Source: a virus
Direction: 5' to 3' (one strand)
Virus record (IMG/VR): IMGVR_UViG_3300046451_002161
Coordinates: 1-38,122 of that record
DNA: 38,122 nucleotides
The notes under the pieces were generated by a model. That model was given only the letters and a program-made list of their open reading frames with translations, was not told the origin of the DNA and made no database searches. A program made the translations under genes and the position numbers. The stretch's first letter is position 1, and each line of letters begins with the position of its first letter. Of the stretch, positions 1,932-24,635 are shown in pieces.

Positions 1932-2015
1932 TTATGTAACTAAATATCCAATGAGCATCATGGTAAGAATCATCAACATGATGAAACCCCAATCTGAGTA
2001 ATCTTCCCAATTCAT
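1932..2015 (-). CDS. Tiny single-pass membrane protein (27 aa)
   Basis: A 27-codon frame from ATG 2015 in an ATGA overlap with the helicase-loader stop; GAGGAGG lies about 10 bases upstream. After an acidic head (MNWEDYSDWG), residues 11-26 form a hydrophobic segment able to span a membrane. It is followed by the same TAATATG junction seen elsewhere. Such miniproteins are often missed; a role in membrane association of replication or in lysis timing is only speculation. Confidence 0.5.
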   Translation of the reverse strand: MNWEDYSDWGFIMLMILTMMLIGYLVT

Positions 2016-2737
2016 GTGAACTTAACCTCCTCTTGAAGGACAGCGTTTTTATTCATTACGATTAGCTCGCATGTCTCTCTTAATCTGAGCAGTAATGCAT
2101 TGCCACGCTCAGGATCATCAAATGCCTTTACAGCATCACTACGCTTGACCTGAGTGGTGCAAAGTAAAGGTAATTGCCTAGACATCCTTGCCTCGATGAT
2201 TTCAAACAATCCGGCTTGAGTGGTTGGACTCATTTTCTCGGAAAACAAATCATCAATTGCTAGGATTGGAACGCTTACAATTTCATCTCTCCAAGACTTA
2301 AAAAATGGACTCCGCTTGGCATCAATTAATTGGGTATGAAAGTCACCTGAGAAAAACACCTTAAATCTTCTGCCTTGCGAATGAAGTTCTTTGAGTAACA
2401 TGCAAAGCGACCTTGTCTTTCCCTGCCTCGATGCACCCATGATGTACAAACCTTTTTTGCGTAATGGAGACCATTTCATTATTTCCGGTAACATCTGCTG
2501 TGCGGAGATTGGCAATTGTGAGATTGATGATTCTCGGTATCCCATTGGGATCAAATTCTCAATTGGTTCAATGGCATGATCGACTCTCGGTAATGCCCTT
2601 TCATCTGCCTGAGCTTTCTGATGAATGGCAACACATGGATCACATACTGCTACATCGTAATTACCTCCAAATAATGGAGCATTGATAAGTTCCTCAGTCC
2701 ATCCTGATTCCTTTCCGCATTCTCTACATGGTATCAT
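2012..2737 (-). CDS. DnaC/IstB-like helicase loader ATPase
   Basis: An AAA+ ATPase of the DnaC-like type that should help load the replicative helicase at the phage origin. From ATG 2737 (241 residues) an N-terminal zinc motif has Cys 4, 7, 32 and 35; Walker A is GASRQGKT at 101-108; Walker B is ILAIDD at 158-163; a sensor-like CTTQ is near 193 and an arginine-finger-like RLRE near 218. The start was chosen because GGAGGA precedes it and it follows the upstream TAA in a TAATATG junction; the longer frame from 2881 only overlaps the previous gene. No replicative helicase is seen here, so a host helicase may be recruited. Confidence 0.85.
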   Translation of the reverse strand: MIPCRECGKESGWTEELINAPLFGGNYDVAVCDPCVAIHQKAQADERALPRVDHAIEPIENLIPMGYRESSISQLPISAQQMLPEIMKWSPLRKKGLYIMGASRQGKTRSLCMLLKELHSQGRRFKVFFSGDFHTQLIDAKRSPFFKSWRDEIVSVPILAIDDLFSEKMSPTTQAGLFEIIEARMSRQLPLLCTTQVKRSDAVKAFDDPERGNALLLRLRETCELIVMNKNAVLQEEVKFT

Positions 2738-2738
2738 A

Positions 2739-3389
2739 TTAAAAATCCTCCTCTCCAAAAGTTCCTGTTGATTCGATCTTCTTATCATCATCGAAGAATA
2801 TTCCCTGCCATCCATTTTGAACTGATCGATTGAGTGCCTTAATGATTGGCTCAACTCCATCCTTCTCCAAGATTGGATCAAATGATTTCCACATCCTTTT
2901 CATCGTAGTGGGCTTGATGGATTTCTTGAGTTCGATTCTCATCTGAACAAATTCATCCCAAGCATCTTTCAGACTATCTATATATATATCTATATCTTTA
3001 TTAATAATATTATATATTTTTAAGGTGCGCACGAAGGGTGCTGTCACTTTTGCCTGTTTTCGGGGGTTTTTGCTGTCACCCTCATTTTGACCACTTTCCC
3101 AATCGATGATTTCCGGTGCTGTCACATTTGCCCCTTTTCGGGGCTTTTTGCTGTCACATTGGAAATCAGGCTTAATTACCTCTGCTGTCACATCTGTTGT
3201 AAACTGAGGCTTTTTGCTGTCACTTTGAACATCGTTTATTTTATAAATATCGATACCCTGAATGATCAAGTGCTTGATAATTTCATTCGTAGACATCTCA
3301 TATTGATCTGAGATTGCCTCCAATTTGAGCCGGAGAAAGTCCGGTAATCTGATGGTTAATCTAGGTTTAGAATGGGACATCGTCTTCAT
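2739..3389 (-). CDS. Replication initiator-like protein with RHH N-terminus
   Basis: A 216-residue protein in three parts. Residues 8-47 look like a ribbon-helix-helix DNA-binding domain (PRLTIRLPDFLRLKLEA...STNEIIKHLI). Residues 55-120 hold three copies of a DSKxP...VTA unit whose DNA contains six iterons. Residues 143-200 match the C-terminal domain common in phage replication initiators (WDEFVQMR...GWQGIFFDD). It probably binds the iterons and recruits the downstream helicase loader, as lambda O does with P. The start may instead be ATG 3380; both overlap the end of the SSB-like gene. RHH plus initiator tail is an unusual pairing. Confidence 0.75.
   Translation of the reverse strand: MKTMSHSKPRLTIRLPDFLRLKLEAISDQYEMSTNEIIKHLIIQGIDIYKINDVQSDSKKPQFTTDVTAEVIKPDFQCDSKKPRKGANVTAPEIIDWESGQNEGDSKNPRKQAKVTAPFVRTLKIYNIINKDIDIYIDSLKDAWDEFVQMRIELKKSIKPTTMKRMWKSFDPILEKDGVEPIIKALNRSVQNGWQGIFFDDDKKIESTGTFGEEDF
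2971..3022. other. AT-rich block, candidate DNA unwinding element
   Basis: About 50 bases made almost only of A and T, with alternating TATATATA runs, directly beside the iteron array and still inside the initiator reading frame, where it codes for an Ile/Tyr/Asp/Asn/Lys-rich linker. Its position suggests the duplex-melting site of the origin. That role is inferred from layout. Confidence 0.6.
3039..3223 (-). repeat. Six GTGACAGCA iterons, candidate phage origin
   Basis: The 9-mer GTGACAGCA (minus strand) occurs six times, at 3039-3047, 3071-3079, 3117-3125, 3149-3157, 3183-3191 and 3215-3223. The copies form three pairs, each with an exact 32-base offset, close to three helical turns. In each pair one copy is read as DSK and the other as VTA, so conservation is at DNA level and not forced by protein sequence. 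An AT-rich block lies on one side. This is the arrangement of an origin inside an initiator gene, as in lambdoid phages. Confidence 0.8.
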
Positions 3390-3801
3390 CTTCTTCTTCT
3401 TCTACGAATTCAGATGGATCAGATTGAAAGTTCACAGATGTGTCCTTACCATTTCCATCATCCACCACAGATGCTGTTTCAGTTGTTGCCGGAAGATACT
3501 TAAATATCTTCTTGTATCCGGCTTTATCAATCCCTGCTTCTACTTCGATTTCCTTCCCAAAGAAAAACTCAAAAGTATGCTTGCCAACCTTGTCCCAAGA
3601 ACTTGATTCAGTACCAAGTGCCTTGAAGAATAAATCCAATTTCCATTGGCAAGATGCCATCAGGAAGAATGAATCATAAAATGTGTTTTCATCCACATTG
3701 TACATAACTGAAATAAACTTATTTCCGTTCTTCGTTAAATTAGGAGTGCCATCCTGTTTTGTGTCATAGCACCCAACTATTTTTGCTGTTTTTTTACTCA
3801 T
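3367..3801 (-). CDS. Single-stranded DNA-binding protein analogue
   Basis: A 144-residue protein from ATG 3801, directly after the exonuclease stop (TAATATG). Residues 1-100 read as a beta-rich domain with repeated aromatic residues (NTFYDSFFLMASCQWKLDLFFKALG), like phage DUF669/OB-type proteins. It ends in a strongly acidic tail finishing DDVPF, nearly the DDDIPF tip with which bacterial SSBs bind partner proteins. It would coat single strands during replication or Erf-mediated annealing. The longer start at 3825 lies inside the upstream gene and is less likely. The exact family is uncertain; the tail is the strong evidence. Confidence 0.75.
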   Translation of the reverse strand: MSKKTAKIVGCYDTKQDGTPNLTKNGNKFISVMYNVDENTFYDSFFLMASCQWKLDLFFKALGTESSSWDKVGKHTFEFFFGKEIEVEAGIDKAGYKKIFKYLPATTETASVVDDGNGKDTSVNFQSDPSEFVEEEEDEDDVPF

Positions 3802-3802
3802 A

Positions 3803-4519
3803 TTAAAATGTGTTATGCTCATCACTCATGTTGCCGAAAACATTTGCGCAACGCTCCCAAAATCTTACAACTAATTCCTTTGAACCATTGGGGTCATCCT
3901 TCTTAGCGAAGTCCAAACAAGTACCGAAATCACCTTCATTAATGTATCCAATTGCTACCGGATCAGAATACTGAGCGTGTAACCCTGCCTTGTCCTTAAT
4001 AGCATCAAAGTGACCCTCTCTAGCGTCATCAATTTTTGCCTGTCTTTTCTCAGCGTCTTTGATGTTACCAAACTTGACTGAACTTTCCTTAAACTCAGGA
4101 ATTACTTTGTGAAGTTCTGCATCCGGTTTTGGTGCTGTCTCGATATCAAAGAATACACAGCGTTCCTCCACATATGCTGAAAGGTAATTATTCATCGACC
4201 TGAAAACATTTCGAGTCTGCATCATATCATTCTCAAGATAGGATTCTTGTTGCTCGCGAGGAAGTTGGTAAAAGAATTTTCCATTACCATTCTTCCCTTC
4301 ATGCCCTGTCCACTTTGATAGGTTATCTAGCGAAACTCTAAACCCCCATTCTGAGGCTCCAAAGAACTCCATAGTATCAACCCATATGGTGGGAAGTTTT
4401 CCGAATTTCTTATTCGCCAAGTGGCTCAGAAAAACAGGGACTTTTACCTGATTCAACATTGACCAACGAATTAAATATGGAACATCGAAGTTCCGGATAT
4501 TATGTCCTACTAAATGCAT
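3803..4519 (-). CDS. DnaQ-family 3'-5' exonuclease with permuted motif order
   Basis: A 238-residue DEDDy-type exonuclease. ExoII is at residues 5-14 (GHNIRNFDVP; N7, D12) and ExoIII at 94-98 (YLEND), while ExoI, normally near the N-terminus, is at 123-130 (FFDIETAP; D125, E127). The C-terminal half (residues 121-238) is what usually precedes ExoII, and the protein starts almost exactly at ExoII. So the gene reads as a circular permutation in one uninterrupted frame. The start is firm: GGGGGA upstream and a TAATG overlap with erf. It probably trims DNA ends for Erf or proofreads. A fusion of two partial genes is the alternative. Confidence 0.8.
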   Translation of the reverse strand: MHLVGHNIRNFDVPYLIRWSMLNQVKVPVFLSHLANKKFGKLPTIWVDTMEFFGASEWGFRVSLDNLSKWTGHEGKNGNGKFFYQLPREQQESYLENDMMQTRNVFRSMNNYLSAYVEERCVFFDIETAPKPDAELHKVIPEFKESSVKFGNIKDAEKRQAKIDDAREGHFDAIKDKAGLHAQYSDPVAIGYINEGDFGTCLDFAKKDDPNGSKELVVRFWERCANVFGNMSDEHNTF

Positions 4520-5205
4520 TATTTATTCCCCCACTTTTTAACTTTATCTTTGATTTCCTGATCAGTAAATTTCAGGAAGGTATTGCAAGCCTTGATCGAA
4601 GAAGTCTCAGGATGAAACCCGATTGCTTCAGCATAACTTTGTGCTTTTAATTCTGCCAATTTTTCTAGGCAAAGCTTTCTCGTTTCTTCACCTGACAATT
4701 CTATATCCGGAATCGGTTCCGATTTTTTAACCGGAGGTTTTGGTTTTGGTTTTGGTTTTGGCTTTTCGGTGGAGTCAACCTCTCCGGCTCCATCTATATC
4801 TTCCTCACTCGCGATGCCAAAATAAGTAGTTAATTGATATCTCCTGAAATAGGTCAGGCTTGCCCCAAGTGATTGCTCAGGACTCATACCTTTTTTCTGA
4901 CTCACCTCAAATGGGAAAAATGAACTAGGTAATCTCTGACCTGATTTATGGAATAGATACAATTCAAGCATGAGTTTTGAATCATCCGTTGGTTGGATCA
5001 TTTGGATATAAGCCAACCCATATTTATTAAGAACTTTTAAGATCGTAACGACCGAAGGAAGTCCTGCGAATTTATATCCGTAGCCTTGTTCCGTTTTCCT
5101 CGGATTAACAAGCTCTGCCTGAGCTTGAGCAAAAGCAGTATAGATTTCCGCAAAAGAAATTTCAGGAGCAGGAATGCTAGGTGTTTTATTGTTTTCATCG
5201 TTCAT
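4519..5205 (-). CDS. erf: ERF-family single-strand annealing protein
   Basis: A 228-residue Erf-type recombinase that would anneal complementary single strands during phage recombination and genome circularisation. Family features are visible: GYGYKFAGLPSVV at 41-53, the SGQRLPSSFFPF strand at 88-99, and the conserved GASLTYFRRYQLTTYFGI at 114-131. A (KP)n linker at 148-158 joins a C-terminal helical part, probably for partner binding. ATG 5205 follows the TAG of the HTH gene with no gap, and the end overlaps the exonuclease gene. With that nuclease and the SSB analogue it forms a recombination cassette. Confidence 0.9.
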   Translation of the reverse strand: MNDENNKTPSIPAPEISFAEIYTAFAQAQAELVNPRKTEQGYGYKFAGLPSVVTILKVLNKYGLAYIQMIQPTDDSKLMLELYLFHKSGQRLPSSFFPFEVSQKKGMSPEQSLGASLTYFRRYQLTTYFGIASEEDIDGAGEVDSTEKPKPKPKPKPPVKKSEPIPDIELSGEETRKLCLEKLAELKAQSYAEAIGFHPETSSIKACNTFLKFTDQEIKDKVKKWGNK

Positions 5206-5385
5206 CTATTTAACTTTCGCAGGGATTTCAAATTTGTTTAAAGCCTCAAGAACTTTTTCAGGTTGGAATCTAATAATCTTACCAACTCGCAAGTATGGTA
5301 TTATTTTTTTCTTTCTGAGGTTTCCTATTGATCTTTCACAGAGTGATAGGAAATCTGCGATTTCTGCTGTAGTATATAATTTCAT
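5206..5385 (-). CDS. HTH_17/MerR-like small DNA-binding protein (excisionase-like)
   Basis: A 59-residue protein in a frame just under the usual cutoff. The sequence YTTAEIADFLSLCERSI then KKKIIPYLRVGKIIRF is the HTH_17 winged-helix pattern used by excisionases and small regulators. ATG 5385 overlaps the nuclease stop as ATGA, and TAG at 5206-5208 directly abuts the erf ATG. It lies about 500 bases downstream of the integrase, so an excisionase role is possible; control of the recombination operon is equally possible. Confidence 0.75.
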   Translation of the reverse strand: MKLYTTAEIADFLSLCERSIGNLRKKKIIPYLRVGKIIRFQPEKVLEALNKFEIPAKVK

Positions 5386-5696
5386 GGTTGTTCTAGTAGT
5401 TGTAGAAAATCTTCAAACTTCATAGTGATCAGATTTTCATGGTTGTTTTTTGTGTGAATTACGCATGGTGGTTTCCCTTTGGAATCCTTGATCGCTTGCG
5501 TAAAAGCTTTATATAAATTCAGTTTTTCGACATGCTTGCATTCGACTGAAAATGGGAAGTCAGGACATGTAATATCTGCATCTCCATTGGCTCCACAAAA
5601 TTGCTGTGAACGATGTGCAGGATATCCATTGTCGGTCAAGATGTGAGCAATCGCCCTTTCATATCTTTGACCTTTTGCTCTAGAATTAATCGGCAT
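5382..5696 (-). CDS. Hjc-like PD-(D/E)XK Holliday junction resolvase/nuclease
   Basis: A 104-residue nuclease. Residues 5-15 (SRAKGQRYERA, with E13), the GDADI segment at 38-42 and VECK at 51-54 give the E-D-ExK active-site layout of Hjc-type resolvases. The small size fits a junction-resolving or DNA-debranching enzyme acting before packaging. The start at 5696 is chosen because GGAGGAACAGCAAG directly precedes it; the longer frame to 5732 overlaps the previous gene. It ends in an ATGA overlap with the HTH gene and belongs to the recombination operon. Exact substrate not known. Confidence 0.75.
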   Translation of the reverse strand: MPINSRAKGQRYERAIAHILTDNGYPAHRSQQFCGANGDADITCPDFPFSVECKHVEKLNLYKAFTQAIKDSKGKPPCVIHTKNNHENLITMKFEDFLQLLEQP

Positions 5697-5898
5697 CTTG
5701 CTGTTCCTCCAAGACATCTCCGGCACAGACATAAATTGCCTCGATTAAATCAGTAAGCGTTCCCTTAAATTCACCACCTGTGGTAAGTGAAATACCTCCA
5801 TCAGAATATACTGACAAATTTAAATTGTTAACCTGAATTGAACTTTTGGTTAACGAGCAGGGTTGAGCTATTTCTTTGAAGTCATTTTTTATGTACAT
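5686..5898 (-). CDS. Hypothetical protein (70 aa), first gene after integrase
   Basis: A 70-residue protein with beta-rich centre (IQVNNLNLSVYSDGGISLTTGG) and an acidic end. Its ATG has a near-perfect AAGGAGGG Shine-Dalgarno sequence and sits 12 bases after the integrase stop, so it may be strongly translated. It overlaps the resolvase gene by 11 bases. No domain is recognised; it heads the recombination/replication run. Confidence 0.6.
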   Translation of the reverse strand: MYIKNDFKEIAQPCSLTKSSIQVNNLNLSVYSDGGISLTTGGEFKGTLTDLIEAIYVCAGDVLEEQQDAD

Positions 5899-5909: not shown

Positions 5910-7079
5910 TTACACCACTAACTCATTTTTATGAGTTGTTAAATCAGAGTAGTATTTTTCACATACTGCTACTGAATTGCGGAGCGTTTTGCTTGCATGA
6001 AATATTCCATGCGTAGATGCCAATCTCGCTCCTAATATTTTCCTCAATCGATGGCATGATTTAACATCAGTTAAACCAAGATCAGTCTTGAGAAATTTTA
6101 TAAATCTTTTGTGGAGTCTTTCACCTCCGTTAATAATTTTTCCTTCCCTTGATTGGAAGTGCAAAAAGACTTGCTGACTTATGCCAACTTTTTCAACATG
6201 TCCTGTTCCCCTTAACTTCGTACCCTTTGTGGCGAACGGAAGAAAAAGAAAATGTTGACCATTAAATATTTTAAAATTGTCAGAATGAACCTGATAGATT
6301 TCTGACTTCCTGAGACCGCAACCAAATGCCAAAAGGTAAATGTCATAAAACACAGGATCAGATTCTTTTTTACCCTGAAAGAATTCTATTATTCTTTCTA
6401 CCTCAGAATCATCAGTCGAAAATGGTTGGGAGACTACACTCTGTGCAATAAAGGAAACAAAATTACCAAAGTGCTTTGTCTCCCAACCCCTCCGTTTGAA
6501 CAACAAAAGATTTTTGCGACTGAATAAAGATTTTATCTGCCTGAGCTTATGAGGAAGATTGTAAATTTCTTCCCATCTCTCCGGCAAGGTTCTCCCCTCA
6601 TCATCCTCGGTTAAAAGGTAATGAGTGGATTCTTGTAAAGAAATCCCTTCCCTCCCACAAAGATCAATAATGTGACTGACATTTTTTTTCCTAGTATCGA
6701 GATTTCCACCGCACCTGTTATTGCAGTCCAAAATCCATGCAAGTAGAAACTCAAGAGTTATTACATTATTTAACTCTTGTATCTTCTTAGTCACTATCCT
6801 CTTTACATCAGACTCTGTAAGTTCGGTTAAGGAGCAATTCAGTGGAATACGAAACTGCTCCTGTTTATGAATAAACTTTAAGGAGACTTTTTGAGAGGAT
6901 AAGTTGACTACTATATCAACTAATTGGGGCAGAAAATTGATTAGGAACTCAAAATTATATATTTGCGAGCCTGAATTTATCTCTTTTTTCCCTTGCAAGA
7001 AAGTGGAGGCGCGGGTGAGAATCGAACTCACGATAGAGGATTTGCAGTCCACGGGTCGCTCTGTATAAATAGGTCTCAT
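5910..7079 (-). CDS. int: Tyrosine recombinase (phage integrase)
   Basis: A 389-codon frame for a tyrosine site-specific recombinase that integrates the phage at a host tRNA-Cys gene. Catalytic candidates: R257 in FGCGLRKSE, K285 in the beta-hairpin, H343 and R346 in CHRLRK, and Y376/Y377 in CEKYYS; the usual LGH histidine is replaced (LRNS). The first 26 codons are the tRNA-derived attP read in frame, and ATG 7079 is the only methionine codon in the whole frame. The folded protein probably begins near residue 40, so GTG or TTG starts inside or after attP are possible. No good Shine-Dalgarno sequence precedes 7079. Confidence 0.88.
   Translation of the reverse strand: MRPIYTERPVDCKSSIVSSILTRASTFLQGKKEINSGSQIYNFEFLINFLPQLVDIVVNLSSQKVSLKFIHKQEQFRIPLNCSLTELTESDVKRIVTKKIQELNNVITLEFLLAWILDCNNRCGGNLDTRKKNVSHIIDLCGREGISLQESTHYLLTEDDEGRTLPERWEEIYNLPHKLRQIKSLFSRKNLLLFKRRGWETKHFGNFVSFIAQSVVSQPFSTDDSEVERIIEFFQGKKESDPVFYDIYLLAFGCGLRKSEIYQVHSDNFKIFNGQHFLFLPFATKGTKLRGTGHVEKVGISQQVFLHFQSREGKIINGGERLHKRFIKFLKTDLGLTDVKSCHRLRKILGARLASTHGIFHASKTLRNSVAVCEKYYSDLTTHKNELVV
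7004..7063 (-). other. attP core: 3' part of tRNA-Cys(GCA)
   Basis: On the minus strand 7050-7004 reads as the 3' half of a cysteine tRNA: anticodon GCA at 7045-7043 in loop CTGCAAA, a perfect T stem (GTGAG/CTCAC) around TTCGATT, an acceptor strand ending CGCGCC, the tRNA-Cys discriminator T, then CCA. Weaker D-arm-like similarity reaches 7063. No 5' acceptor strand precedes it, so this is not a complete tRNA gene. One mismatch in the anticodon stem suggests identity with the host starts near 7050. Phages that integrate into tRNA genes carry exactly such a 3' fragment. Confidence 0.85.
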
Positions 7080-11373: not shown

Positions 11374-11634
11374 TTATTCCTCATCATTTTCTTCTCCACC
11401 ATTTCCGGACATTGCACCACCAAACATCATCATTGCTTTCGCGTATGCAGGATGAAGGATAGGAATATCATACTCCCTTGAAGTAGATGTTTTCTTCTCC
11501 TTCAAGATTGGTTTCTTTGATTTCTTCGATTGGCTTTCCGTAGGCATCTTGGACGAATCTTGTTCGCCTTGTTTTTTGTTGTTTAGGTAGTCGTTCATTT
11601 TTTTCAGTATATTTGGGTCTGCCCATGAAGTCAT
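11374..11634 (-). CDS. Small protein overlapping the end of the giant gene out of frame
   Basis: An 86-residue frame from ATG 11634 (other starts at 11682 TTG, 11646, 11598). It overlaps the last 167 bases of the 2913-residue gene in the +1 frame. The N-terminal half is Lys/Ser-rich; the end (DIPILHPAYAKAMMMFGGAM then Glu/Asp) looks like real protein, and its terminus carries the Shine-Dalgarno sequence for the next gene. No strong ribosome-binding site precedes any start, so expression may need re-initiation or a frameshift. Function unknown. Confidence 0.5.
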   Translation of the reverse strand: MTSWADPNILKKMNDYLNNKKQGEQDSSKMPTESQSKKSKKPILKEKKTSTSREYDIPILHPAYAKAMMMFGGAMSGNGGEENDEE

Positions 11635-14600
11635 CAACAAAAGCATCTCGGTCTGCCGAAGTCGCAGGGAACTTTCCGGCAATTGCTAATTCACCTAGAA
11701 TATCAAAACTAGAATGACCGACAGCTTCCTTCTTGATCATATTCCAAGTGACCCAATGCATAGCAAATGCTGAGTCGATCCAAGCGTAATCCTGTCGCTT
11801 CTTGCCCACCTGTTTTGCTAGATCAGAAAACATATATTCTAGAGTCCGGTACATAGCATGTTCAACAGGATCATCCAATTGCGATCCGATAGTTTTATAG
11901 TATCCTGATCGATCTTCCGGTACACCTTTGGCATCCACTCGATATGGACTGACTCCGAATTTTACATATTCTTTTTTCTGCTTCTCAGCAAAATCCTTAG
12001 CACTCTTCGATGCTTCCGGATCAGCGAGAATTTCATTTACTTTTTGCAGTCTGTTTTGCACAGCACCTTGAATCTGATGCTCCCATACATTTACAAATTG
12101 CCATCTGTCCATGATAACCACATTTGGGTCTGCCATTAAAGCAATAACAAATGATGTAACCTTGTCTTTCACTCCGGCTCCAAGGAAACCATTAGACCAC
12201 ATCTTCTCGCGGATTTGCTGACCATTTAAACTCTTATCATTAAAGATGCCTGTGAGTTCTTTCCATCTGCCATTCCATTTCACAAGCATGTCATGGATTG
12301 CCTGAATATTTTGCTTGGCATTATTTCCTGCTGAGACCGGACTCTTCTGATCGTTGAACATGTTGGCAACAATGTCGGTAAATGTATCCGGTTGATCGTA
12401 GATATTTCTTCGTTCAGCTTCAGAAGCGAAGGCAACCCTTTCCTTTTTAGGTAACTTTTTAATTCTAGATTCGATATAAGCTTTCTTTTGTTTGCCAATT
12501 GCTGTGATTTTTTCCTTAGCCTTATCAACCCTTTTCTTTTCTTTTTTCTTTAACTGATTTACAATTCTAGTTCTTAACTTATTAAGCTTTGCCTTTGGCA
12601 CTTCCAATTTTAAAGCTTCGATATATAAACTACTAGATTCTGCAACTGATCTGAAATCAATTTTAGGTTCAATATCTAATTGCATCTCTGCAATTTTTAC
12701 ATCGAAATCCTTGTACCCTTTTTGAGTCCTCCAACCATCACCATATTTCTCATCTGCGATTGAGGACATATCGTAAAATGTACCTTTCTCCATTTCATAA
12801 TTTCCATCAATCGATTGGAAAATCGCATTCCACATAGGCTTATAATTTGTTGTCCTAAGCCACCCTGCTTCCTGATTATAGGGATCAAGCATCCGGCTCA
12901 GTAAACCCCATATAAAACTCTGTGCGATCATCTCCGGTGGCTTGACTATCTTGTGCAATGCTGTGGCACTCTGATAACCCTCCTTAGCTAACTCAATGAA
13001 CTCAGGGTTGGTTGCCATCGTGCTGTCCAACCAATCCACTAACTGATCAATGTTATTTACATAATCTAAGAATTTTGTAGGTGGAGCAGGTATTTCAAAA
13101 CTACTGACAGAATTTAATCTGAGTTGATGAATCTTCTCCCAATTTTCAGGAGTCGCATAACGCTTGCCTAACTTTTTCATCATGGCATCCGCGAGTGCAT
13201 TGTCTGCAAAGTATTGATCCCAATGTGACTGAGTCCAATTCTTAGAATTTTTTGTTAAACCAATCTCAGTTTTTTCATTATCGTAACTGAGCATTGGGAA
13301 ATTCATTTTCGTGTCCTTTGACATTACCTCGCTTGGAACGCTTGGCATAAAGTTCAAAGAATTGATCATGGAATTTCTTACTTCATCTGATATCTGTCCA
13401 CTATCAGATTCAATGCTCTCGTGGCGAACGATTCCCTTGTTTCTCCATCTCGCATTTGCAAAGGCAAGAGCATTTTCAGGTGCTTGTCCTCGGACTTCCT
13501 CGGTGCTGATTGGGAAATTTTCAGGTACTGAGAGTTCCCCATCTTTTCTTGTTTTAATTTCGGTTTGCGTTTCGATATCATAGATTGAATCTTGGTCACC
13601 CCATATTGCCATTCGCACAGCATCAAGGTAGTTATTAACAGGGAATGCAACATCGAGCATAAAGCCTCGTTGATCGCTTAACCATCCCCCTAAGTGAGCG
13701 CCATCTTTTTTGAAACGATGGGCATGAGTTTTGATATAATTCCATAATGCAGTCCGGTTCATTTCTTGACTCGGAATAATAAACTCAGTTTCTTTTTCCG
13801 GAGCTACAACATATCCGGTTTTAGCATGAATAAGATTGCTCTGATCAATTGTAAAACCATAGGGATTTTTCCGCATGTCAACAATCAGGTCATCGAAATG
13901 TTGGGCGGTATCATCAGTCAACATAGTGTATGGCATCGCGAGAATTGAACCCTCATTAGAGAATGTAAATTCCTGTCTCTTTAAGTCACCCTCGTCTCCC
14001 CAAATTTTAGCCTGTGCGTTAGCGTCAACAACCGCATAAGTTCGACCCCCATACTCCTCATGCATTCTAAATAAATCAAATCCATGTTTCTTATGTAAAT
14101 ATGTATTGATTGAATTATCTGTCGTTTTTGATGGGTCACTAATATTTGTTTCTATGCTCGAAGGACTTTCAAATAAATTCCAATTTACTCCACTTTCGTG
14201 GTATCCTTGCATCACGATTTCTTCCATTGCTTTTGGTGGAAGATTTGCAAGTGCATCAGACTCCTCTCTACGACTTTCAATAAATGCCTTGTTTATTTTT
14301 TCAGTAAAACTTTTATCAGTAATACTTTCCAAAAACCTTCCTTCAGGAGTATCTAATCTTCCTGTTCCATCGTTCAAAACTTTATCACCTTCAAATAATT
14401 TCGTGAGGTAAGAAACTAGATTGGGTAATCTTGTTTTTTTGTATCTAGAACTAGGAGAATGATTTCTCCACTTCCAAATTATTGAGTCAATAACATCAGG
14501 CAAATTTACTCCATTAAAAGAAGTTCCAATATATTGTTGCCTATCTTCAAGTGGCATATCTCTCCACCACTCACTAATTAAATTTTGATGCATGGGATTA

Positions 14601-17600
14601 TCTGTATCCCACATTTTCTTACCCTTGATAACAAAAGTTGATTCATTATTTTTAGGAGACATATTAGAACCTCGCCCAACCCTTTCCTGCCTGTCGGTAA
14701 AGAACGCTTGGATCGAACCATATCGATGTGTCTGATCTCCGATTTCTTCATTGAAATTTCCACGCTCTGTCATTCTTTCAGAATGCCCATGTATTAAAAC
14801 GATTGGTTCAGCAGAATCTTTTTGTGTCAATAATCCACCCTGATGCCACTCTTTAAAATATTTACTATTGTAACCTTTCTCTTGAAATTCTTTGTCAGCA
14901 TCCATTAGAAGATCGATGTCCGCTCGGCTCATTTTGGTCACATCCATATCAAGCTTGCCATCTTTTACTCCGGCGCTCCACGAAGGTTCCGGCATGAAAT
15001 GTATTTGGCTTGCTTGCTCTCTTTTAAAATCACGCAAATGATAAGCATCAAAAACGACAAACTCAGATGAGTGATCAATATAGGAACCATACATATTGGT
15101 GGGTGATTCCTGTCCATGAATTCCGGCTAAACCAAGGATATGATTTACTACAAGAAATGGCTCGCTGTTCTTTTTAAAATCAAATGATTTATCTAGATGA
15201 ATTGTTTTTTGTTTTTCGGGATTATATATATTAACTAATCCGTGATATAAAGTAATAGCATTATTTTCATTCCACTCCGGAAGGATATTAATTGACTCAA
15301 TCTCTTTACCATTGAATGGGTCAATGAAATTTGTTTTATTCTTAGTGTAAAACCGATTCCAAACTTGAGCTAAACTTTGCTCCTGCCCTTTTATTCTTGA
15401 ATCAAATAATTTATCTAACTTATTAATTATATCCGGATGCTGTGTGTTTATAGAATTGTGACTTTTAAGAAATTCATTATCAGGGAGTTTCTCAAAACTA
15501 TAAATATTCTCTCCATAATTTTCTGTATCAGATGGTTCCACATGACCATAATACCCTAAACCTAAGAACCCTGAATTGCCTGTCGTTTGCCCAACTTTTT
15601 TTAAATCAGGATACTGATACTCAGAAGCAGAACCATGATAAATTCGTTCTCCAAATTTTCTTTTCCCATTCTTACCCAAAAGGTTTTTAGGAGGTAATGG
15701 AATAGTGTAAGTGATTCCATTTTCTTGAAAGGTTGGTAACTCAGGTAGGAAAAATAACGAGTCATCCAATTTTCTTCTTTGGTAAGTTTCGTTATTTGTT
15801 TTTAAATTATGCGCGCCCCTACGGATGGCAAAAGACGAATTTTCCTCAACTGCTCTTTTAATAGTATTAGTAATTATCGCCCTTTTAAAAGTTGTCTCAC
15901 CCACTCCCTCCTCCAACCCACCATAATTGAGTAAGTATTTAACTAACCCAAAACGCTTTTCACCCTCAACCTTCCTCATAAGCGGATGAATTAAATGATC
16001 ATTCTGTGGGTCACTATACCACTTAATTGTCTCATCCCTTGTTGCTTTTGCTTTAGGAAAAATTTGATATTCTTTCCTTACATCACTTTTAGGACGATGA
16101 TCAATTGCCATGAAATTTCCGGTATCAAAATCATATCGAAATGCATCGAGTAGATTGAAATAAACCGACTCACCTTCCCCATCTACCTTCCCTGCAGGAT
16201 TTAAATCTTCTAGATCGAATACCAAATCAGGTGAAATAGAAGAACTATGGACTTCTTGAATTTTCATGCGCACCTCATCTCTTTCTCGCAAGGCAAATGC
16301 TGTGATGAGCCGGACATATGAATCTGAATTAATATCGTTAGTTAATATTTGATCGTCATCATAATATTGATTGAATGAATAATTGCTTAATTCATTCGCA
16401 CCATACGCACCATCACCTTTTTTTTTGTGAAAAGTTATGTGGTTTTTATTTTTACTTTTTAAGAGTTGGGATAATCGCGCTGATGCAGTTCTCAAATCAT
16501 TTACGCTTGATAAATCCATGTGAACTATTGGTATACCTACCTTATCTGAAAAATCATACAACGCTTGATAGATTTTCTTGCCGGAAAAAACACTTGTGTT
16601 ATCCAACTTCCCCATTCCCATTTTGCCTAGATTTGAAGTGTCAAGCCTAATTATGAATGGTGGTTGGGGGAGGGTGATTTTAGCGTCTTGGTAAACTTGT
16701 TTCATTATGTTTACACTAAAACTTGCAGTACCCTTGTTGCCAAGTATGTGTTGGTTTTCAGTATTATCATCCTTTATTTTGTATCGTACTCCATATGCTT
16801 CATCATCATCTTCTTTCCATAAAAGCTCAGGTGTTACCGAAATTCCACTATAATCGGATAAAACATTTTCAAGTTCCAATCCCAAATTGTCTAATTGTTG
16901 TTTTCGAGTTTGGGTTCCGCTTTCGTTGTCTTGTAAAGATTTAAAGTCAAGTTTTTGATTAGCAAAAATATCTTCATTACCCTTAGTCGCTCCAATTAAA
17001 AACGACCCTATGCGATCAACCTGATCTCTTTGATTTTCATGTGGGTTTAATGCCCACTCAATTAACGACTCATTTAAACTCTCACCCTCTATATTAAAAT
17101 CAGACTCAGGGTCTTGAAGTATGGTCTCTATTTCCTTATTCGTGTACTGATCAAAAGCAGATGGCAGAGCAATAAAACCATCGGTCTGTCTTTGGGTAAC
17201 ATACTTTTTCTTTTTAGGAGGTATAGTAGACTGATTACTACCATCACCACTCAACATTGGCATGTAGTTAAATTTTGCATTTTTGTAATCGTAGGCATAC
17301 CCATCCCTGTTTTGTGAACTAAGTCCTGCGAGTGCTGAAATATCGTAGGACTTGAATGCGTTCTTCATTTTATTTCTTTCGGGATCGGAGAACCATTCAT
17401 TTCGTGCAGGATCAATAATTCGCTCACCTGATTCTTTCATCCCCATAGCCATGGTAAACAATTCATTCTCTCCATGACCTAGCGGATTGATCCTTCCCTC
17501 ATCACCAACTTCAGTTAAAACATTTTGAGCATGTTGTGCAAAAGCTTGCTTGAAATCACTTACACTTTGACCATCGGGAAGCAATCCTGCATGTGCCATA

Positions 17601-20209
17601 ATTTCAATATTACTCTCAACCACATCAGCATCATATGCCATGACTTTTAGGTTTGGGTAGATAGTTCTACCAAGTCTATTGTAAGGCTTTTTAGGACTGA
17701 TCTGCCAAGCGTATGGAGTAACACTCCGCTCAAAGAACGCGTTGTAATCTGACTTCTTTAAGAATGAAGCTGATCTGTATCCGAACTTTAACATTTTTCT
17801 GCCATCAATCGCGGACTGAAGCATGTCAATGATTGAGGTTACAGAATTATTATACTTTCCTGACATTCCAAAAACTTGCCTAGTTTTCCAATGCAAATTT
17901 TTACCTTCATTGCCTTTACCAATACCGGTAAACGAACTTGGATTTTCTCCCTCATTACGAAGTTTATCAGCTTCCAACAATTGATTATATTGCTCCGTAT
18001 CTTTTACATGAAAATGTGAAGCGACAGCAAGATTTACTCCGACTCCACCGAAAAGCTGAGTGAACCTTTCGTCAGATTTTTGACCTTCTTCGGGACTATG
18101 CTTTCTACCTTTCTCAATTGCGTCTGAGCGTTCACCTAAATGCTTTGCTTTTTCCTTAACATAATTATCAAAAACTTTTTTGACATTATCATTTTTAAGC
18201 ATTGCTTTCGAGATTACTGAACTTACACCCTTGCCTGATTTTGGCTCAAGAACTCCCATTTTTGTAAGTGCTGTTTTCATGGCACTAAATAGAGAATGCC
18301 GAATACTTTTATTCATTCCCTCAAATGCATTTGGATTTTCCTGAGTGGCAATGCTCCATTGCTCTGCACCAATCTCCTCAGATAATAATCCGGCATCTCC
18401 ATCACCATTATATTCTATGTCCACAAGATTTCCTTGCGCATCTAATTTTCCGGTGAAACCTAAAGCATGTGCAACATCAGGCAAGCTTGGTAAAATCTTA
18501 GTTGCATAATCCTTAGCGAATTGAAATGCCTCATCGTTCACTTTTATGCTACCAATACTTTTACCATTCTCATCCTTATAGGAAAACTCAGTTCCACCCT
18601 CGTCTGAAAATCCTTCAAGTATTGCTCTGCGAGTCATCGGTGCTGAACCTAAAAGTTCACGCATAGCATGATGCCCATGCTCGTGTAAGAAAATATTTGA
18701 GGCAATTTGAGTGCCTTCCTTTATCTGATCTTTATTAATGTAAATTGTCCGCGACTTTTGATCATACATTGCCGGAGGCACTCTTCCCACTTTTACCTTT
18801 GGAACTTCAATGTCCACTGATCGGGATTTATTAATGGCATCAACAATCAAATCTTGACTCGCTAACATCATTCTAAAATTTCCAAGTTCCGCAGTTTCAT
18901 CAAGTGTAGAAAGAGCAATTAATGAATCATCCTCTAAGCCTTTAATAGCTTTGATGGTCTCCTGATCACCAAGTCGTTGCTTTTTTACTATGTAATTATC
19001 AATTCCCTGCAATGAGCGATCTGACATTGAACCATCGGGATTATAATCTGCCTTCGATTTCCCTGATCCTCGTTGTCCTGCTAAACCAACAGGTGAACCA
19101 AAACCAATACCCATACCTGTGGCATAACCAACATCTTCTGCGGACTTACCTTTCAGTCCTTCCATCCCGATCTGCATTGCCCCTGCTCCCAACCCTGCAA
19201 CAAAAGAATCAAATGCAATGTCATACAATTGCGTACCTTTCATTTTATACAAAGCACTTGCCGATTTCCTAGTTGCCTTACTCACCTTATCGCTCGTTGC
19301 TAGACGATGAAGGAATCTAGAATGTGATGATGGTTGAGAAAATATTTTTGCTATCGTACCAAATTCTTGTGCTGTCTTTCCGGCAATTTTTGTCAGCACC
19401 TCTCCGGCATACGATGTAGCAATTGCTCCGGCAATTGGAGCGACAATCGGAGTAGTCACCCCACCTAAAGTTCCGGCAATTGATGCACCCTGAAGAACAG
19501 AATATCCACCACCCACTTTTGCTTTTTCAGATAATTTTTTTGGTAGTCCTAGTGCGTCACTTATTTTTACCAATCCATTCCCAACTCCGTCTAATGCATA
19601 GCCTGTTGCTCCAACCCCACCCTTGGCTAAACCCCTTACAGCTTTTGATCCACCCTTGAGTGCAAAAGCGGATGGTAGTACATTTGTCGCGTCTGTGACA
19701 TCGGCTAAAAATGAAAGCTTTTTTTGAAACTTATTAGTCGTTGCTTTTATAAAAGCCTCGCGAGCGACTTGATTGTAATCAAGTTCCTTCTTATGTCTCT
19801 CCCAACCTCGCTCTGCTCTTTCTTCTAATGATAAATCATTATTAAAATGATCCTTGATGTTTCCGATTATCGCTTTGAACGAATTAAATGTATCTCTCGC
19901 CCCAAGCTCAGGTGACCTTAGTAAAGTTCTCCACGCTTCTGATGCCTCACCCTCTTCTTCCCCAAACCCAAGCATAGATGAGATCAAACTTCCTTCATTC
20001 CATGCTTCTGATGCCTCCTCCGCAAATCCTTCAAGACCTTCAGGTACATGTTTAGTGAATGCCCAAATCGCCTCACCATTACCTCGTTTTTCTCTCCGCA
20101 TCCAATCCTGAATGAAAAACTCTTTTTGTTTATCTTCAGGAATTATAGTATCAATTCCATAATTGATTCCTGCCTCTTCCTGCTCTTCGTCTGCGTAAAT
20201 AATTGCCAT
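11468..20209 (-). CDS. Giant polyvalent internal virion protein (2913 aa)
   Basis: A 2913-residue multi-domain protein, nearly a quarter of the window. Visible parts: hydrophobic Gly/Ala-rich segments near 190-280; a zinc-metalloprotease motif HEHGHH at 509-514 with EEIGAE (611-616) as candidate third ligand; a WYL-like stretch beginning near 800 (MLKFGYRS...VTPYAWQISP); an ADP-ribosyltransferase-like region starting YHGSA at 1524 and ending near 1725; a second starting LIHGH at 1806 with a typical end near 2050; a GGWL..RGFMLDV module near 2170; and a C-terminal helical region with GFLGAGVKDKV near 2675. Such proteins travel in the capsid of podoviruses and are injected to act early on the host. 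Domain calls are by eye and need profile searches. Confidence 0.8.
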   Translation of the reverse strand: MAIIYADEEQEEAGINYGIDTIIPEDKQKEFFIQDWMRREKRGNGEAIWAFTKHVPEGLEGFAEEASEAWNEGSLISSMLGFGEEEGEASEAWRTLLRSPELGARDTFNSFKAIIGNIKDHFNNDLSLEERAERGWERHKKELDYNQVAREAFIKATTNKFQKKLSFLADVTDATNVLPSAFALKGGSKAVRGLAKGGVGATGYALDGVGNGLVKISDALGLPKKLSEKAKVGGGYSVLQGASIAGTLGGVTTPIVAPIAGAIATSYAGEVLTKIAGKTAQEFGTIAKIFSQPSSHSRFLHRLATSDKVSKATRKSASALYKMKGTQLYDIAFDSFVAGLGAGAMQIGMEGLKGKSAEDVGYATGMGIGFGSPVGLAGQRGSGKSKADYNPDGSMSDRSLQGIDNYIVKKQRLGDQETIKAIKGLEDDSLIALSTLDETAELGNFRMMLASQDLIVDAINKSRSVDIEVPKVKVGRVPPAMYDQKSRTIYINKDQIKEGTQIASNIFLHEHGHHAMRELLGSAPMTRRAILEGFSDEGGTEFSYKDENGKSIGSIKVNDEAFQFAKDYATKILPSLPDVAHALGFTGKLDAQGNLVDIEYNGDGDAGLLSEEIGAEQWSIATQENPNAFEGMNKSIRHSLFSAMKTALTKMGVLEPKSGKGVSSVISKAMLKNDNVKKVFDNYVKEKAKHLGERSDAIEKGRKHSPEEGQKSDERFTQLFGGVGVNLAVASHFHVKDTEQYNQLLEADKLRNEGENPSSFTGIGKGNEGKNLHWKTRQVFGMSGKYNNSVTSIIDMLQSAIDGRKMLKFGYRSASFLKKSDYNAFFERSVTPYAWQISPKKPYNRLGRTIYPNLKVMAYDADVVESNIEIMAHAGLLPDGQSVSDFKQAFAQHAQNVLTEVGDEGRINPLGHGENELFTMAMGMKESGERIIDPARNEWFSDPERNKMKNAFKSYDISALAGLSSQNRDGYAYDYKNAKFNYMPMLSGDGSNQSTIPPKKKKYVTQRQTDGFIALPSAFDQYTNKEIETILQDPESDFNIEGESLNESLIEWALNPHENQRDQVDRIGSFLIGATKGNEDIFANQKLDFKSLQDNESGTQTRKQQLDNLGLELENVLSDYSGISVTPELLWKEDDDEAYGVRYKIKDDNTENQHILGNKGTASFSVNIMKQVYQDAKITLPQPPFIIRLDTSNLGKMGMGKLDNTSVFSGKKIYQALYDFSDKVGIPIVHMDLSSVNDLRTASARLSQLLKSKNKNHITFHKKKGDGAYGANELSNYSFNQYYDDDQILTNDINSDSYVRLITAFALRERDEVRMKIQEVHSSSISPDLVFDLEDLNPAGKVDGEGESVYFNLLDAFRYDFDTGNFMAIDHRPKSDVRKEYQIFPKAKATRDETIKWYSDPQNDHLIHPLMRKVEGEKRFGLVKYLLNYGGLEEGVGETTFKRAIITNTIKRAVEENSSFAIRRGAHNLKTNNETYQRRKLDDSLFFLPELPTFQENGITYTIPLPPKNLLGKNGKRKFGERIYHGSASEYQYPDLKKVGQTTGNSGFLGLGYYGHVEPSDTENYGENIYSFEKLPDNEFLKSHNSINTQHPDIINKLDKLFDSRIKGQEQSLAQVWNRFYTKNKTNFIDPFNGKEIESINILPEWNENNAITLYHGLVNIYNPEKQKTIHLDKSFDFKKNSEPFLVVNHILGLAGIHGQESPTNMYGSYIDHSSEFVVFDAYHLRDFKREQASQIHFMPEPSWSAGVKDGKLDMDVTKMSRADIDLLMDADKEFQEKGYNSKYFKEWHQGGLLTQKDSAEPIVLIHGHSERMTERGNFNEEIGDQTHRYGSIQAFFTDRQERVGRGSNMSPKNNESTFVIKGKKMWDTDNPMHQNLISEWWRDMPLEDRQQYIGTSFNGVNLPDVIDSIIWKWRNHSPSSRYKKTRLPNLVSYLTKLFEGDKVLNDGTGRLDTPEGRFLESITDKSFTEKINKAFIESRREESDALANLPPKAMEEIVMQGYHESGVNWNLFESPSSIETNISDPSKTTDNSINTYLHKKHGFDLFRMHEEYGGRTYAVVDANAQAKIWGDEGDLKRQEFTFSNEGSILAMPYTMLTDDTAQHFDDLIVDMRKNPYGFTIDQSNLIHAKTGYVVAPEKETEFIIPSQEMNRTALWNYIKTHAHRFKKDGAHLGGWLSDQRGFMLDVAFPVNNYLDAVRMAIWGDQDSIYDIETQTEIKTRKDGELSVPENFPISTEEVRGQAPENALAFANARWRNKGIVRHESIESDSGQISDEVRNSMINSLNFMPSVPSEVMSKDTKMNFPMLSYDNEKTEIGLTKNSKNWTQSHWDQYFADNALADAMMKKLGKRYATPENWEKIHQLRLNSVSSFEIPAPPTKFLDYVNNIDQLVDWLDSTMATNPEFIELAKEGYQSATALHKIVKPPEMIAQSFIWGLLSRMLDPYNQEAGWLRTTNYKPMWNAIFQSIDGNYEMEKGTFYDMSSIADEKYGDGWRTQKGYKDFDVKIAEMQLDIEPKIDFRSVAESSSLYIEALKLEVPKAKLNKLRTRIVNQLKKKEKKRVDKAKEKITAIGKQKKAYIESRIKKLPKKERVAFASEAERRNIYDQPDTFTDIVANMFNDQKSPVSAGNNAKQNIQAIHDMLVKWNGRWKELTGIFNDKSLNGQQIREKMWSNGFLGAGVKDKVTSFVIALMADPNVVIMDRWQFVNVWEHQIQGAVQNRLQKVNEILADPEASKSAKDFAEKQKKEYVKFGVSPYRVDAKGVPEDRSGYYKTIGSQLDDPVEHAMYRTLEYMFSDLAKQVGKKRQDYAWIDSAFAMHWVTWNMIKKEAVGHSSFDILGELAIAGKFPATSADRDAFVDDFMGRPKYTEKNERLPKQQKTRRTRFVQDAYGKPIEEIKETNLEGEENIYFKGV

Positions 20210-22632: not shown

Positions 22633-22655
22633 GATATTTTATCTCCTATCTGATT

Positions 22656-24635
22656 TTAATATTGAGGGCGATCATTACGATTGGATGCCCACCCTGAGAC
22701 AAGACCACTAACACCACCCCCAATAATATTTCCAAACATCTGATTGATTCCCGATTTTTCTTCTGCTTTTGCTCGTGCCATTTGAGCATTATAAGAATTT
22801 AATTCTGATGCTTGATTTGCTTTAAATTCAGCACCTTGCGATGGGTTATATATTTGTGGTGACGCATTAACTCCGGCATACGCATTTCCGTAGGTTGATT
22901 GCCCTGCCTCATTTGAAACTCCTGAAGGTCTGCCAAGAATTGCCTGAAATGGATCAGCGGATGTTGCCTGTTCAACACCTACTCGCTGAACTGCGTATCC
23001 TCGGTCTTGAGCCAATCCGGTTTGATATGATTGATCGTTAATTTGCTTATTAGAGATAGATCGATCCATCAATCCCATCTGTGTATTCATAACTTGTCCG
23101 GCAAAATTTTGTCGATCTGTTTGCCTTGCTCTTGAAGCTTGCTCATTAAAATTTAATTCTGCAAGTACACCCGAAAAGTCTCTTCCGCGACCTCGTGCTG
23201 AAGTTGCCATCCGCGCACCCTGTGATGCAGTTCGCATTTCTCTTGATGTTAACCTACCCCCTGCTTGCATACCCTCTTGAGCCTGTGCAAGCATTTGTTG
23301 ATTTAGACCTCTTGAGCTTGGTTGATTTGATTTAGAGGAGTTTACACCCTGCTCCGGCATTCGCTCGTTTAAAGCTGAAGTATCACCATAACCCCCTGCC
23401 GGTTGCTCAAATTTTTTTGATTGAGAATTTCGTCCTTCTAATTTTTCTCTTAATATTTTTGTTTTTTTCTTAAACTCGGCTAACTCCCTCATGTCCTTTG
23501 GATCACCAAGCGCTCCTGAGCTATTTATTCGACCAATAATTTCCTTCTCCTCTTTAGCAGTTTGAGCCTCAAATTCTTCTAATTCTAGATCGTAAGCTTC
23601 TTGAGCTTTACCCTGATCAAAATTATCCAAGTTCTGCTGATTCTGTGCAAACATAGTTGGTTGCGGATCATCAACTAAACTAAATATATCATTGCTTTGA
23701 TTTTGTGGAATGGCAGACATTGAGCCTAGACGCTCAGTCTCATCGAGTGCGTCCTGAATGCCACCTTGTTGTCTATAAAGATCGGTTGCTTCCTGCCCAT
23801 ACTCACCGACCAATCCTAATTCATTATTGATCGTGCTTCGTTGCTCGCGCTGTCTTAAATCTTGTTCAAACTTCTGAGTACCTTGAAATTCTCCGGCTTT
23901 ACTATATCCGGCTTGCCGATTTTCAGACAAACCATCTTCGTTGTAAAACTTCGATGATTGTTCACCTCCAATTGTCTGTAATAATCCACCACTACGATGT
24001 AAAGACCCTGCTTTATCCTTTCCAACAAACTCCTTATAAGTATTACTCTCAGGGTCACCCTCAATCATTACATCTTCCCTAGAATAGTAAGGCGCATCAT
24101 CTCCGTATCCGCTTTTGATGGATTTAAACTCAGACATCAATTTTGTTGTCTCTGCGCCATCGGTATTTTGCGCTATGTATTGCGCTAATCTATTTGTAGG
24201 TGATGCACCATCAGTTCCATTCCACCCTGTGCCTTGCTGATTACCCCACTCACCATGGCGCATCCAATCGTAATGATCGCCCTCAATCCACCCTCCGGTT
24301 GCTTCAGACAATCCATTTTTTACTATATCATATGCTCTAGTACCTAACTTTCTTGCGTAAGCAATTGCAACAGCATCCTGATCTTTAAATTGCTCCCACT
24401 CTTGTGGATTAAAATCAACTCCCTCTACTGCGACATATCCATCTGAATTAACTTCCTGCGATACTCCATGTAATTGCTGACTAGTAATTTGAGAATCAAG
24501 CCTTGCATAAGCTTTTCTTCCTGACTCAGGGTCTGCCTCTGCTTTGTACAGCATCGGAGCTAAATTAACTTGGGCAATGAGTGCATCTCTCATTGATTCT
24601 TCGTAGTCTAAAATTTCTGCTGATGTCATACTCAT
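22656..24635 (-). CDS. Internal / minor structural protein (659 aa)
   Basis: A 659-residue Gln/Gly/Ser-rich protein. The N-terminus (DYEESMRDALIAQVNLAPML then YARLDSQ) is of a type found near the start of large phage structural proteins. The middle is low-complexity and charged, and the C-terminus ends in a glycine-rich hydrophobic segment (GNIIGGGVSGLVSGWA). Together with the next two genes it probably forms the set of internal proteins injected with the DNA. ATG 24635 follows a weak AGGAAG. Exact family not recognised. Confidence 0.6.
   Translation of the reverse strand: MSMTSAEILDYEESMRDALIAQVNLAPMLYKAEADPESGRKAYARLDSQITSQQLHGVSQEVNSDGYVAVEGVDFNPQEWEQFKDQDAVAIAYARKLGTRAYDIVKNGLSEATGGWIEGDHYDWMRHGEWGNQQGTGWNGTDGASPTNRLAQYIAQNTDGAETTKLMSEFKSIKSGYGDDAPYYSREDVMIEGDPESNTYKEFVGKDKAGSLHRSGGLLQTIGGEQSSKFYNEDGLSENRQAGYSKAGEFQGTQKFEQDLRQREQRSTINNELGLVGEYGQEATDLYRQQGGIQDALDETERLGSMSAIPQNQSNDIFSLVDDPQPTMFAQNQQNLDNFDQGKAQEAYDLELEEFEAQTAKEEKEIIGRINSSGALGDPKDMRELAEFKKKTKILREKLEGRNSQSKKFEQPAGGYGDTSALNERMPEQGVNSSKSNQPSSRGLNQQMLAQAQEGMQAGGRLTSREMRTASQGARMATSARGRGRDFSGVLAELNFNEQASRARQTDRQNFAGQVMNTQMGLMDRSISNKQINDQSYQTGLAQDRGYAVQRVGVEQATSADPFQAILGRPSGVSNEAGQSTYGNAYAGVNASPQIYNPSQGAEFKANQASELNSYNAQMARAKAEEKSGINQMFGNIIGGGVSGLVSGWASNRNDRPQY

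What the first reader, a model, noticed from the sequence alone, without database searches (positions are those of the whole stretch)
3803..4519. DnaQ-type exonuclease with circularly permuted motif order (ExoII-ExoIII-ExoI)
Seen: in one uninterrupted frame GHNIRNFDVP (ExoII) opens the protein, YLEND (ExoIII) is at 94-98, and FFDIETAP (ExoI) is at 123-130. Known: DEDD exonucleases order the motifs I-II-III, and ExoI begins the first strand. Here the stretch that normally lies between ExoI and ExoII runs to the C-terminus, and the protein starts exactly where that stretch would continue. The start has a good ribosome-binding site and a TAATG overlap, so it is not an annotation slip. Inference: a natural circular permutation, the old ends joined by about 25 residues, or two half-genes fused in reverse order.
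Basis: partly seen in the sequence, partly recalled or inferred. Interest (0 to 1): 0.85.

Follow-up and report, generated by a model that had tools for sequence, protein, structure and literature searches.

The report
Circularly permuted phage 3'-5' exonuclease
A phage lineage carries a DNA-trimming enzyme of a very old and common family whose chain has been cut in the middle and its old ends joined, so that the active-site motifs come in the order 2-3-1; the rearrangement is real, shared by ten independently assembled virus contigs, and kept intact by selection.

Summary
The 238-residue protein at window 3803-4519 (-) is a PolB-type (DEDDy) 3'-5' exonuclease in the order ExoII-ExoIII-ExoI. 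Against a profile of canonical relatives only, residues 2-111 match positions 109-218 and residues 121-236 match positions 3-108 (i-E 1e-17, 2e-14); with the halves swapped it is one full-length domain (E 2e-37); none of 2000 shuffles match. It is not an assembly slip. Ten IMG/VR contigs, window included (8 distinct proteins, 37-96% identical to it), have this order in the same gene cluster, start straight after or overlapping erf, keep all four acidic residues, and form one supported clade (100/99). 154 distinct relatives are canonical. dN/dS is 0.06-0.10. AlphaFold2 gives pLDDT 91, pTM 0.87, with exactly cyclically shifted secondary structure; a canonical relative matches PolB exonuclease domains over its whole length (Z 18), the permuted model only over its first half (Z 5-6). 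The old ends are joined almost without added linker. Most likely role: 3'-end trimming in single-strand-annealing recombination (inferred). I found no earlier report of a permuted DnaQ/DEDD exonuclease. New variant of a known family.

The parts
3803..4519 (-). Circularly permuted PolB-type (DEDDy) 3'-5' exonuclease gene, 238 aa plus stop
   Evidence: ORF; profile order test; family hits; model
4187..4519 (-). Residues 1-111: half carrying ExoII and ExoIII (C-terminal half of canonical relatives)
   Evidence: canonical profile positions 109-218, i-E 1.4e-17
3812..4159 (-). Residues 121-236: half carrying ExoI (N-terminal half of canonical relatives)
   Evidence: canonical profile positions 3-108, i-E 2.2e-14
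4484..4507 (-). ExoII motif GHNIRNFD, residues 5-12, catalytic D12
   Evidence: sequence; D12 invariant in all 8 permuted proteins
4226..4240 (-). ExoIII motif YLEND, residues 94-98, Y94 and D98 (DEDDy type)
   Evidence: sequence; Y94 and D98 invariant
4136..4150 (-). ExoI motif FDIET, residues 124-128, D125 and E127
   Evidence: sequence; invariant
4160..4195 (-). Junction of the old ends, residues 109-120
   Evidence: alignment; end of ExoIII helix plus short loop before strand 1 in the model
4528..4532 (-). Shine-Dalgarno-like GGGGG, 8 nt before the ATG; GGAGG in L002
   Evidence: sequence
4519..5205 (-). Erf-type ssDNA annealing protein, stop overlaps exonuclease start
   Evidence: PF04404 3.1e-22, phrog_2324 9.3e-27
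3367..3801 (-). SSB-like protein with acidic C-terminal tail (EDDVPF), next gene in the cluster
   Evidence: ORF; conserved position in the permuted loci; no Pfam match, assignment inferred
5382..5732 (-). PDDEXK / Holliday-junction-resolvase-like endonuclease
   Evidence: PF24608 1.3e-12; phrog_244 9.3e-27
2739..3389 (-). RepO-like replication protein
   Evidence: phrog_678 3e-9
2012..2881 (-). DnaC/IstB-like helicase loader
   Evidence: PF01695 1.4e-6; phrog_50 8e-11

Best explanation
The gene encodes a stand-alone 3'-5' exonuclease of the PolB exonuclease-domain type (DEDDy) that is a natural circular permutation of that domain. The chain now begins at strand 4 (ExoII), runs through the ExoIII helix, passes through a short loop made of the old C- and N-terminal tails into strand 1 (ExoI), and ends after helix A, where canonical enzymes cross to strand 4 (shown by sequence; supported by the structure model). 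The permutation arose once, in the ancestor of a phage lineage, most simply by tandem duplication of a canonical gene followed by loss of the first half of copy 1 and the last half of copy 2 (inferred). The fold closes as in canonical enzymes, so D125 and E127 (ExoI), D12 (ExoII) and D98 (ExoIII) bind two metal ions, with Y94 placing the attacking water (inferred from conservation and the family mechanism). It sits between an Erf annealase and an SSB-like gene, near a resolvase and replication genes, and no DNA polymerase was recognised among the window genes I searched, so its likeliest job is trimming 3' ends or flaps during Erf-mediated single-strand annealing, not proofreading (inferred).
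For: Order reversed against a canonical-only profile; halves swapped gives one full-length domain, 2.3e-37 versus two domains. Halves swapped also raises PF10108 from 23.8 to 26.4 bits and extends the matched profile from 54-173 to 9-171. Ten contigs in all with the same order, the same gene cluster and a start overlapping or a few bases from the erf stop. The permuted clade is monophyletic, 100/99, in all bootstrap trees. Catalytic residues are invariant in 8 proteins. dN/dS 0.06-0.10. AlphaFold2 pLDDT 91.2, pTM 0.87 with cyclically shifted helices and strands (versus canonical control). The canonical control matches PolB exonuclease domains end to end, Z 16-18; among those the permuted model matches essentially only its residues 1-117, to the ExoII-III part (KOD 204-334, Pol II 218-350), Z 5-6, as a sequential aligner should do with a permuted chain.
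Against: No biochemical data. Active-site distances were not measured, because the prediction tool gives no coordinates. No intermediate (tandem gene, fused dimer or remnant) was found that shows how it arose. Top-ranked structural matches of the permuted model include unrelated proteins (Ham1, Maf; Z 6.2-6.4), so the fold search alone does not prove the fold. The Erf-pathway role rests on gene neighbourhood only.
Confidence: 0.87

Rival explanations
1. Assembly artefact: the contig joins two fragments of a canonical gene in the wrong order.
For: The window is a metagenomic virus record; a single contig could be misassembled.
Against: Nine other contigs from other metagenome projects show the same order with flanking genes intact, down to 37% identity, and the reading frame is under purifying selection across the junction.
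Confidence: 0.01
2. The permuted protein works only as a domain-swapped or intertwined dimer: the ExoI half of one chain completes the ExoII-III half of another.
For: The join between the ExoIII helix and strand 1 is short, and permuted chains can swap domains (general knowledge).
Against: The single-chain model is confident (pTM 0.87). The join is about as long as the two native tails together, so closure within a chain looks sterically possible (inferred). No dimer was modelled.
Confidence: 0.08
3. A permuted remnant that has lost catalysis and serves as a DNA-binding or scaffold subunit of the Erf/SSB complex.
For: The ExoII surroundings drift in L157 (AGHMSNKYD instead of VGHNIxxFD); inactive DEDD relatives with other roles are known (Maelstrom, PMC2628886).
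Against: D12, D98, D125, E127 and Y94 are invariant in all eight proteins and dN/dS is low.
Confidence: 0.08
4. Two independent half-proteins of different origin were fused in reverse order, rather than permutation of one gene.
For: The end product would look similar; no sequence result speaks for it.
Against: Both halves match the same canonical family and meet at adjacent profile positions 108/109 without loss or duplication; no stand-alone halves of this family were seen among the matching frames.
Confidence: 0.05

Closest known systems
Phage PolB-like 3'-5' exonucleases (PF10108 DNA_pol_B_exo2; phrog_403; e.g. polB-like protein1 of MW202520.1 and exonuclease of Rhizobium phage RHph_Y25)
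   Same: Same family, DEDDy motifs, similar length; canonical members are also found near Erf and SSB genes.
   Different: Those run ExoI-ExoII-ExoIII; this one runs ExoII-ExoIII-ExoI, and scores just under the PF10108 cut-off in natural order (23.8 versus 24 bits).
Exonucleases in Verrucomicrobia genomes and related viral contigs (L052-L054, L007, L076, L159)
   Same: Among the nearest canonical relatives, about 32-37% identical with halves swapped; shared stretches such as VKxGNxKDPEK, AKNGxGK and YLxND.
   Different: Canonical order; in several the SSB-like gene lies upstream of the exonuclease, not downstream.
Exonuclease domain of family B DNA polymerases (E. coli Pol II, KOD/Tgo, Pyrobaculum PolB, Pol epsilon)
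   Same: Fold and motif type; the canonical relative aligns end to end at Z 16-18.
   Different: Those are proofreading domains inside polymerases with canonical order; this is a stand-alone permuted domain.
Circularly permuted Ribonuclease H-like domain pair reported by CIRPIN (PMC12667903)
   Same: Also a circular permutation within the RNase H-like fold, found by structure comparison.
   Different: A domain pair from a clustered AlphaFold database; the text I read names neither the family nor the proteins and gives no gene context or motif analysis. Whether it touches this branch is unknown.

Membership tests
PolB-like 3'-5' exonuclease (PF10108 / DEDDy) | ExoI DxE, ExoII NxxFD-like, ExoIII YxxxD all present | tested here: met
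   D125/E127, D12, Y94/D98; invariant in 8 proteins
PolB-like 3'-5' exonuclease (PF10108 / DEDDy) | Motif order ExoI-ExoII-ExoIII | tested here: not met
   Order is II-III-I; this is the departure, so it is filed as a permuted variant, not as an ordinary member
PolB-like 3'-5' exonuclease (PF10108 / DEDDy) | Sequence score above the Pfam curated cut-off | tested here: inconclusive
   23.8 bits versus cut-off 24 in natural order; 26.4 with halves swapped
PolB-like 3'-5' exonuclease (PF10108 / DEDDy) | Homology to family members over the whole length | tested here: met
   Both halves match a canonical-only profile; halves swapped 2.3e-37; hhalign 99.9% for the N half
PolB-like 3'-5' exonuclease (PF10108 / DEDDy) | RNase H-like fold with PolB-exonuclease arrangement | tested here: inconclusive
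   Confident model with cyclically shifted elements; aligners that follow chain order match only the N half; coordinates not available for a permutation-aware alignment
PolB-like 3'-5' exonuclease (PF10108 / DEDDy) | Metal-dependent 3'-5' exonuclease activity | not testable with these tools
   Needs an assay
Circular permutation of a known domain | Two halves in exchanged order that together cover the whole domain once | tested here: met
   Profile 109-218 then 3-108, no gap or duplication
Circular permutation of a known domain | Canonical-order homologues exist and lie outside one permuted clade | tested here: met
   154 distinct canonical sequences; permuted clade single, 100/99
DnaQ (Pol III epsilon, DEDDh) | ExoIII epsilon-type HxxxxD histidine | tested here: not met
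   ExoIII is YLEND, the DEDDy type

The most novel reading that the evidence does not exclude
An active, naturally circularly permuted member of the DEDD/DnaQ exonuclease superfamily, not previously described, arisen once and spread with an Erf recombination module; the permutation puts both free ends at the strand-4 edge and may have been selected because it changes how the enzyme docks on the annealase or SSB.
Probability: 0.7. Interest if true: 0.68.

Novelty: new variant of a known kind. Interest (0 to 1): 0.62.

Why it matters
DEDD exonucleases (proofreading domains, RNase D/T, WRN, TREX1) are a very widespread nuclease superfamily, and the chain order I-II-III is treated as part of their description. 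A stable, selected permutation suggests that the active site does not depend on that order. It explains why order-dependent profiles and structure searches under-score or half-match such proteins, and gives a natural starting point for engineering or splitting such exonucleases. It also gives a clean case of circular permutation in phage genes with canonical relatives known.

Tried and rejected
Assembly error: rejected, ten independent contigs. A second, canonical copy in the same phage: none at E<=0.001 in the window or in the contigs of L002 and L003. A search of about 390 Verrucomicrobiota genomes for permuted members: all those with both halves matched are canonical by their coordinates. 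Plasmids: no match. Isolate phages: only canonical relatives. Order-dependent structure search for a permuted relative: no full-length match seen among the PDB or BFVD rows; this does not exclude one. PDB by sequence: nothing relevant. NCBIfam: no match in natural or swapped order. Looked for intermediates (tandem or split genes) among the fetched loci: none.

Full report
Observation. The minus-strand ORF at 3803-4519 is 238 residues long and uninterrupted. The start codon overlaps the stop of the erf gene (TAATG) and has a purine-rich stretch upstream; in a 96%-identical relative this is a plain GGAGG.

Is the order really permuted? I collected relatives by sequence and built a profile only from the canonical ones (49 distinct sequences). 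Against it, residues 2-111 of the natural protein match positions 109-218 (i-E 1.4e-17) and residues 121-236 match positions 3-108 (i-E 2.2e-14). If the two halves are swapped, the protein is one uninterrupted domain at positions 4-218 (E 2.3e-37). None of 2000 shuffled copies match. The halves meet at adjacent profile positions, so nothing is lost or duplicated. Pfam gives the same picture more weakly: PF10108, 23.8 bits in natural order (profile 54-173), 26.4 bits with the halves swapped (profile 9-171).

Is it an artefact? No. Scans of IMG/VR found the same order in nine other contigs, giving eight distinct proteins, 37-96% identical to the window protein. Where the contig reaches far enough, they share the order tyrosine-recombinase-like gene, resolvase, erf, permuted exonuclease, SSB-like gene, RepO-like gene, DnaC-like loader, with the exonuclease start overlapping or within a few bases of the erf stop. 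Among the frames of this family in the collected loci, 29 (eight proteins, several fetched repeatedly) are permuted and 273 (154 distinct) are canonical. In a tree of 83 sequences with the permuted ones re-ordered, the permuted proteins form one clade (100/99, all bootstrap trees), next to canonical proteins from Verrucomicrobia genomes and related viral contigs. The nearest canonical sequences are about 30-37% identical. A scan of about 390 Verrucomicrobiota genomes gave canonical copies only (order read from the coordinates).

Is it maintained? Between the window, L002 and L003, dN/dS is 0.06-0.10 over the whole gene, 0.04-0.07 in the first half, 0.07-0.10 in the second and at most 0.09 across the junction. 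D12, Y94, D98, D125 and E127 are invariant in the eight proteins.

Structure. AlphaFold2, given the permuted relatives plus half-fragments of canonical ones (no canonical row spans the junction), predicts the natural order with mean pLDDT 91.2 and pTM 0.87. A canonical relative (L052) was the control: pLDDT 93.6, pTM 0.88. The elements of the two models correspond one to one after a cyclic shift: canonical E3-12, E67-77, E85-89, H94-105, E114-117, H120-134, E153-155, H198-218 correspond to permuted E121-130, E185-193, E200-204, H212-235, E2-5, H8-22, E46-48, H88-113. The control matches exonuclease domains of family B polymerases end to end (Pyrobaculum PolB Z 18.1; E. coli Pol II Z 16.6; Pol epsilon Z 16.6). 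Among those polymerases, the permuted model matches essentially only its residues 1-117, on the ExoII-ExoIII part (Pol II 218-350, KOD 204-334; Z 5-6), which is what order-following aligners should give. Coordinates are not returned, so I could not measure whether the four acidic residues meet.

Anatomy of the join. From the ExoIII aspartate to the ExoI aspartate there are 24-26 residues in the permuted proteins I counted (window, L077). In canonical L052 and L007 the tail after ExoIII plus the head before ExoI sum to about 21-23 residues (counted from the sequences). The old ends are thus joined almost directly: the ExoIII helix runs about five residues longer, then a loop of about seven residues leads into strand 1.

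Function. Shown: family, motif type (DEDDy, PolB branch), conservation, gene context. Inferred: two-metal 3'-5' exonuclease activity, and a role in Erf-mediated single-strand annealing. No DNA polymerase was recognised among the window genes I searched (not every ORF was searched), which makes proofreading for a phage polymerase unlikely.

Origin. The simplest route is tandem duplication of a canonical gene, a new start inside copy 1 and a new stop inside copy 2. No tandem or split intermediate was found among the loci. In several canonical relatives the SSB-like gene lies upstream of the exonuclease, in the permuted cluster it lies downstream, so the locus was rearranged at some point as well; this is not explained.

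Known or new. The held open-access library returned no circularly permuted DnaQ/DEDD exonuclease. The RNase H-like superfamily survey PMC3985635 does not mention permutation. The preprint CIRPIN (PMC12667903) reports one permuted pair of RNase H-like domains found by structure comparison, without naming the family in the text I read. I therefore rate this a new variant of a known kind. Circular permutation as such is well known in other protein families.

Noticed in passing
window 3037-3223, inside the RepO-like ORF 2739-3389 (-); also L003:5315-5501 and L078:5258-5450: Three iteron-like 43-49 nt repeats, each with TGACAGC near both ends, with conserved spacing (66 and 78 nt); in the window and L003 an AT-rich palindrome lies beside them. 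They encode protein repeats (DSKxPxxxxxVTAP). Looks like a replication origin embedded in the initiator gene, as in phage lambda O.
   Followed up: partly
window 5910-7079 (-): Conserved 389-aa protein in the permuted clusters with a tyrosine-recombinase-like C-terminus (HRLRK ... YYSDL) but no Pfam or PHROG match.
   Followed up: no
window 11468-20209 (-): A 2913-aa ORF without any Pfam match; two neighbouring long ORFs (20215-24635) also have none.
   Followed up: no
L037:2539-2982 and L008:2486-2980 versus window 3367-3801: An SSB-like gene lies directly upstream of the canonical exonuclease in these loci but directly downstream of the permuted one in the window lineage; homology to the window gene was detected for L037, and L008 was judged by eye.
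   Followed up: partly
L157:784-1479: The most diverged permuted member has AGHMSNKYD at ExoII instead of VGHNIxxFD; the aspartate is kept.
   Followed up: no
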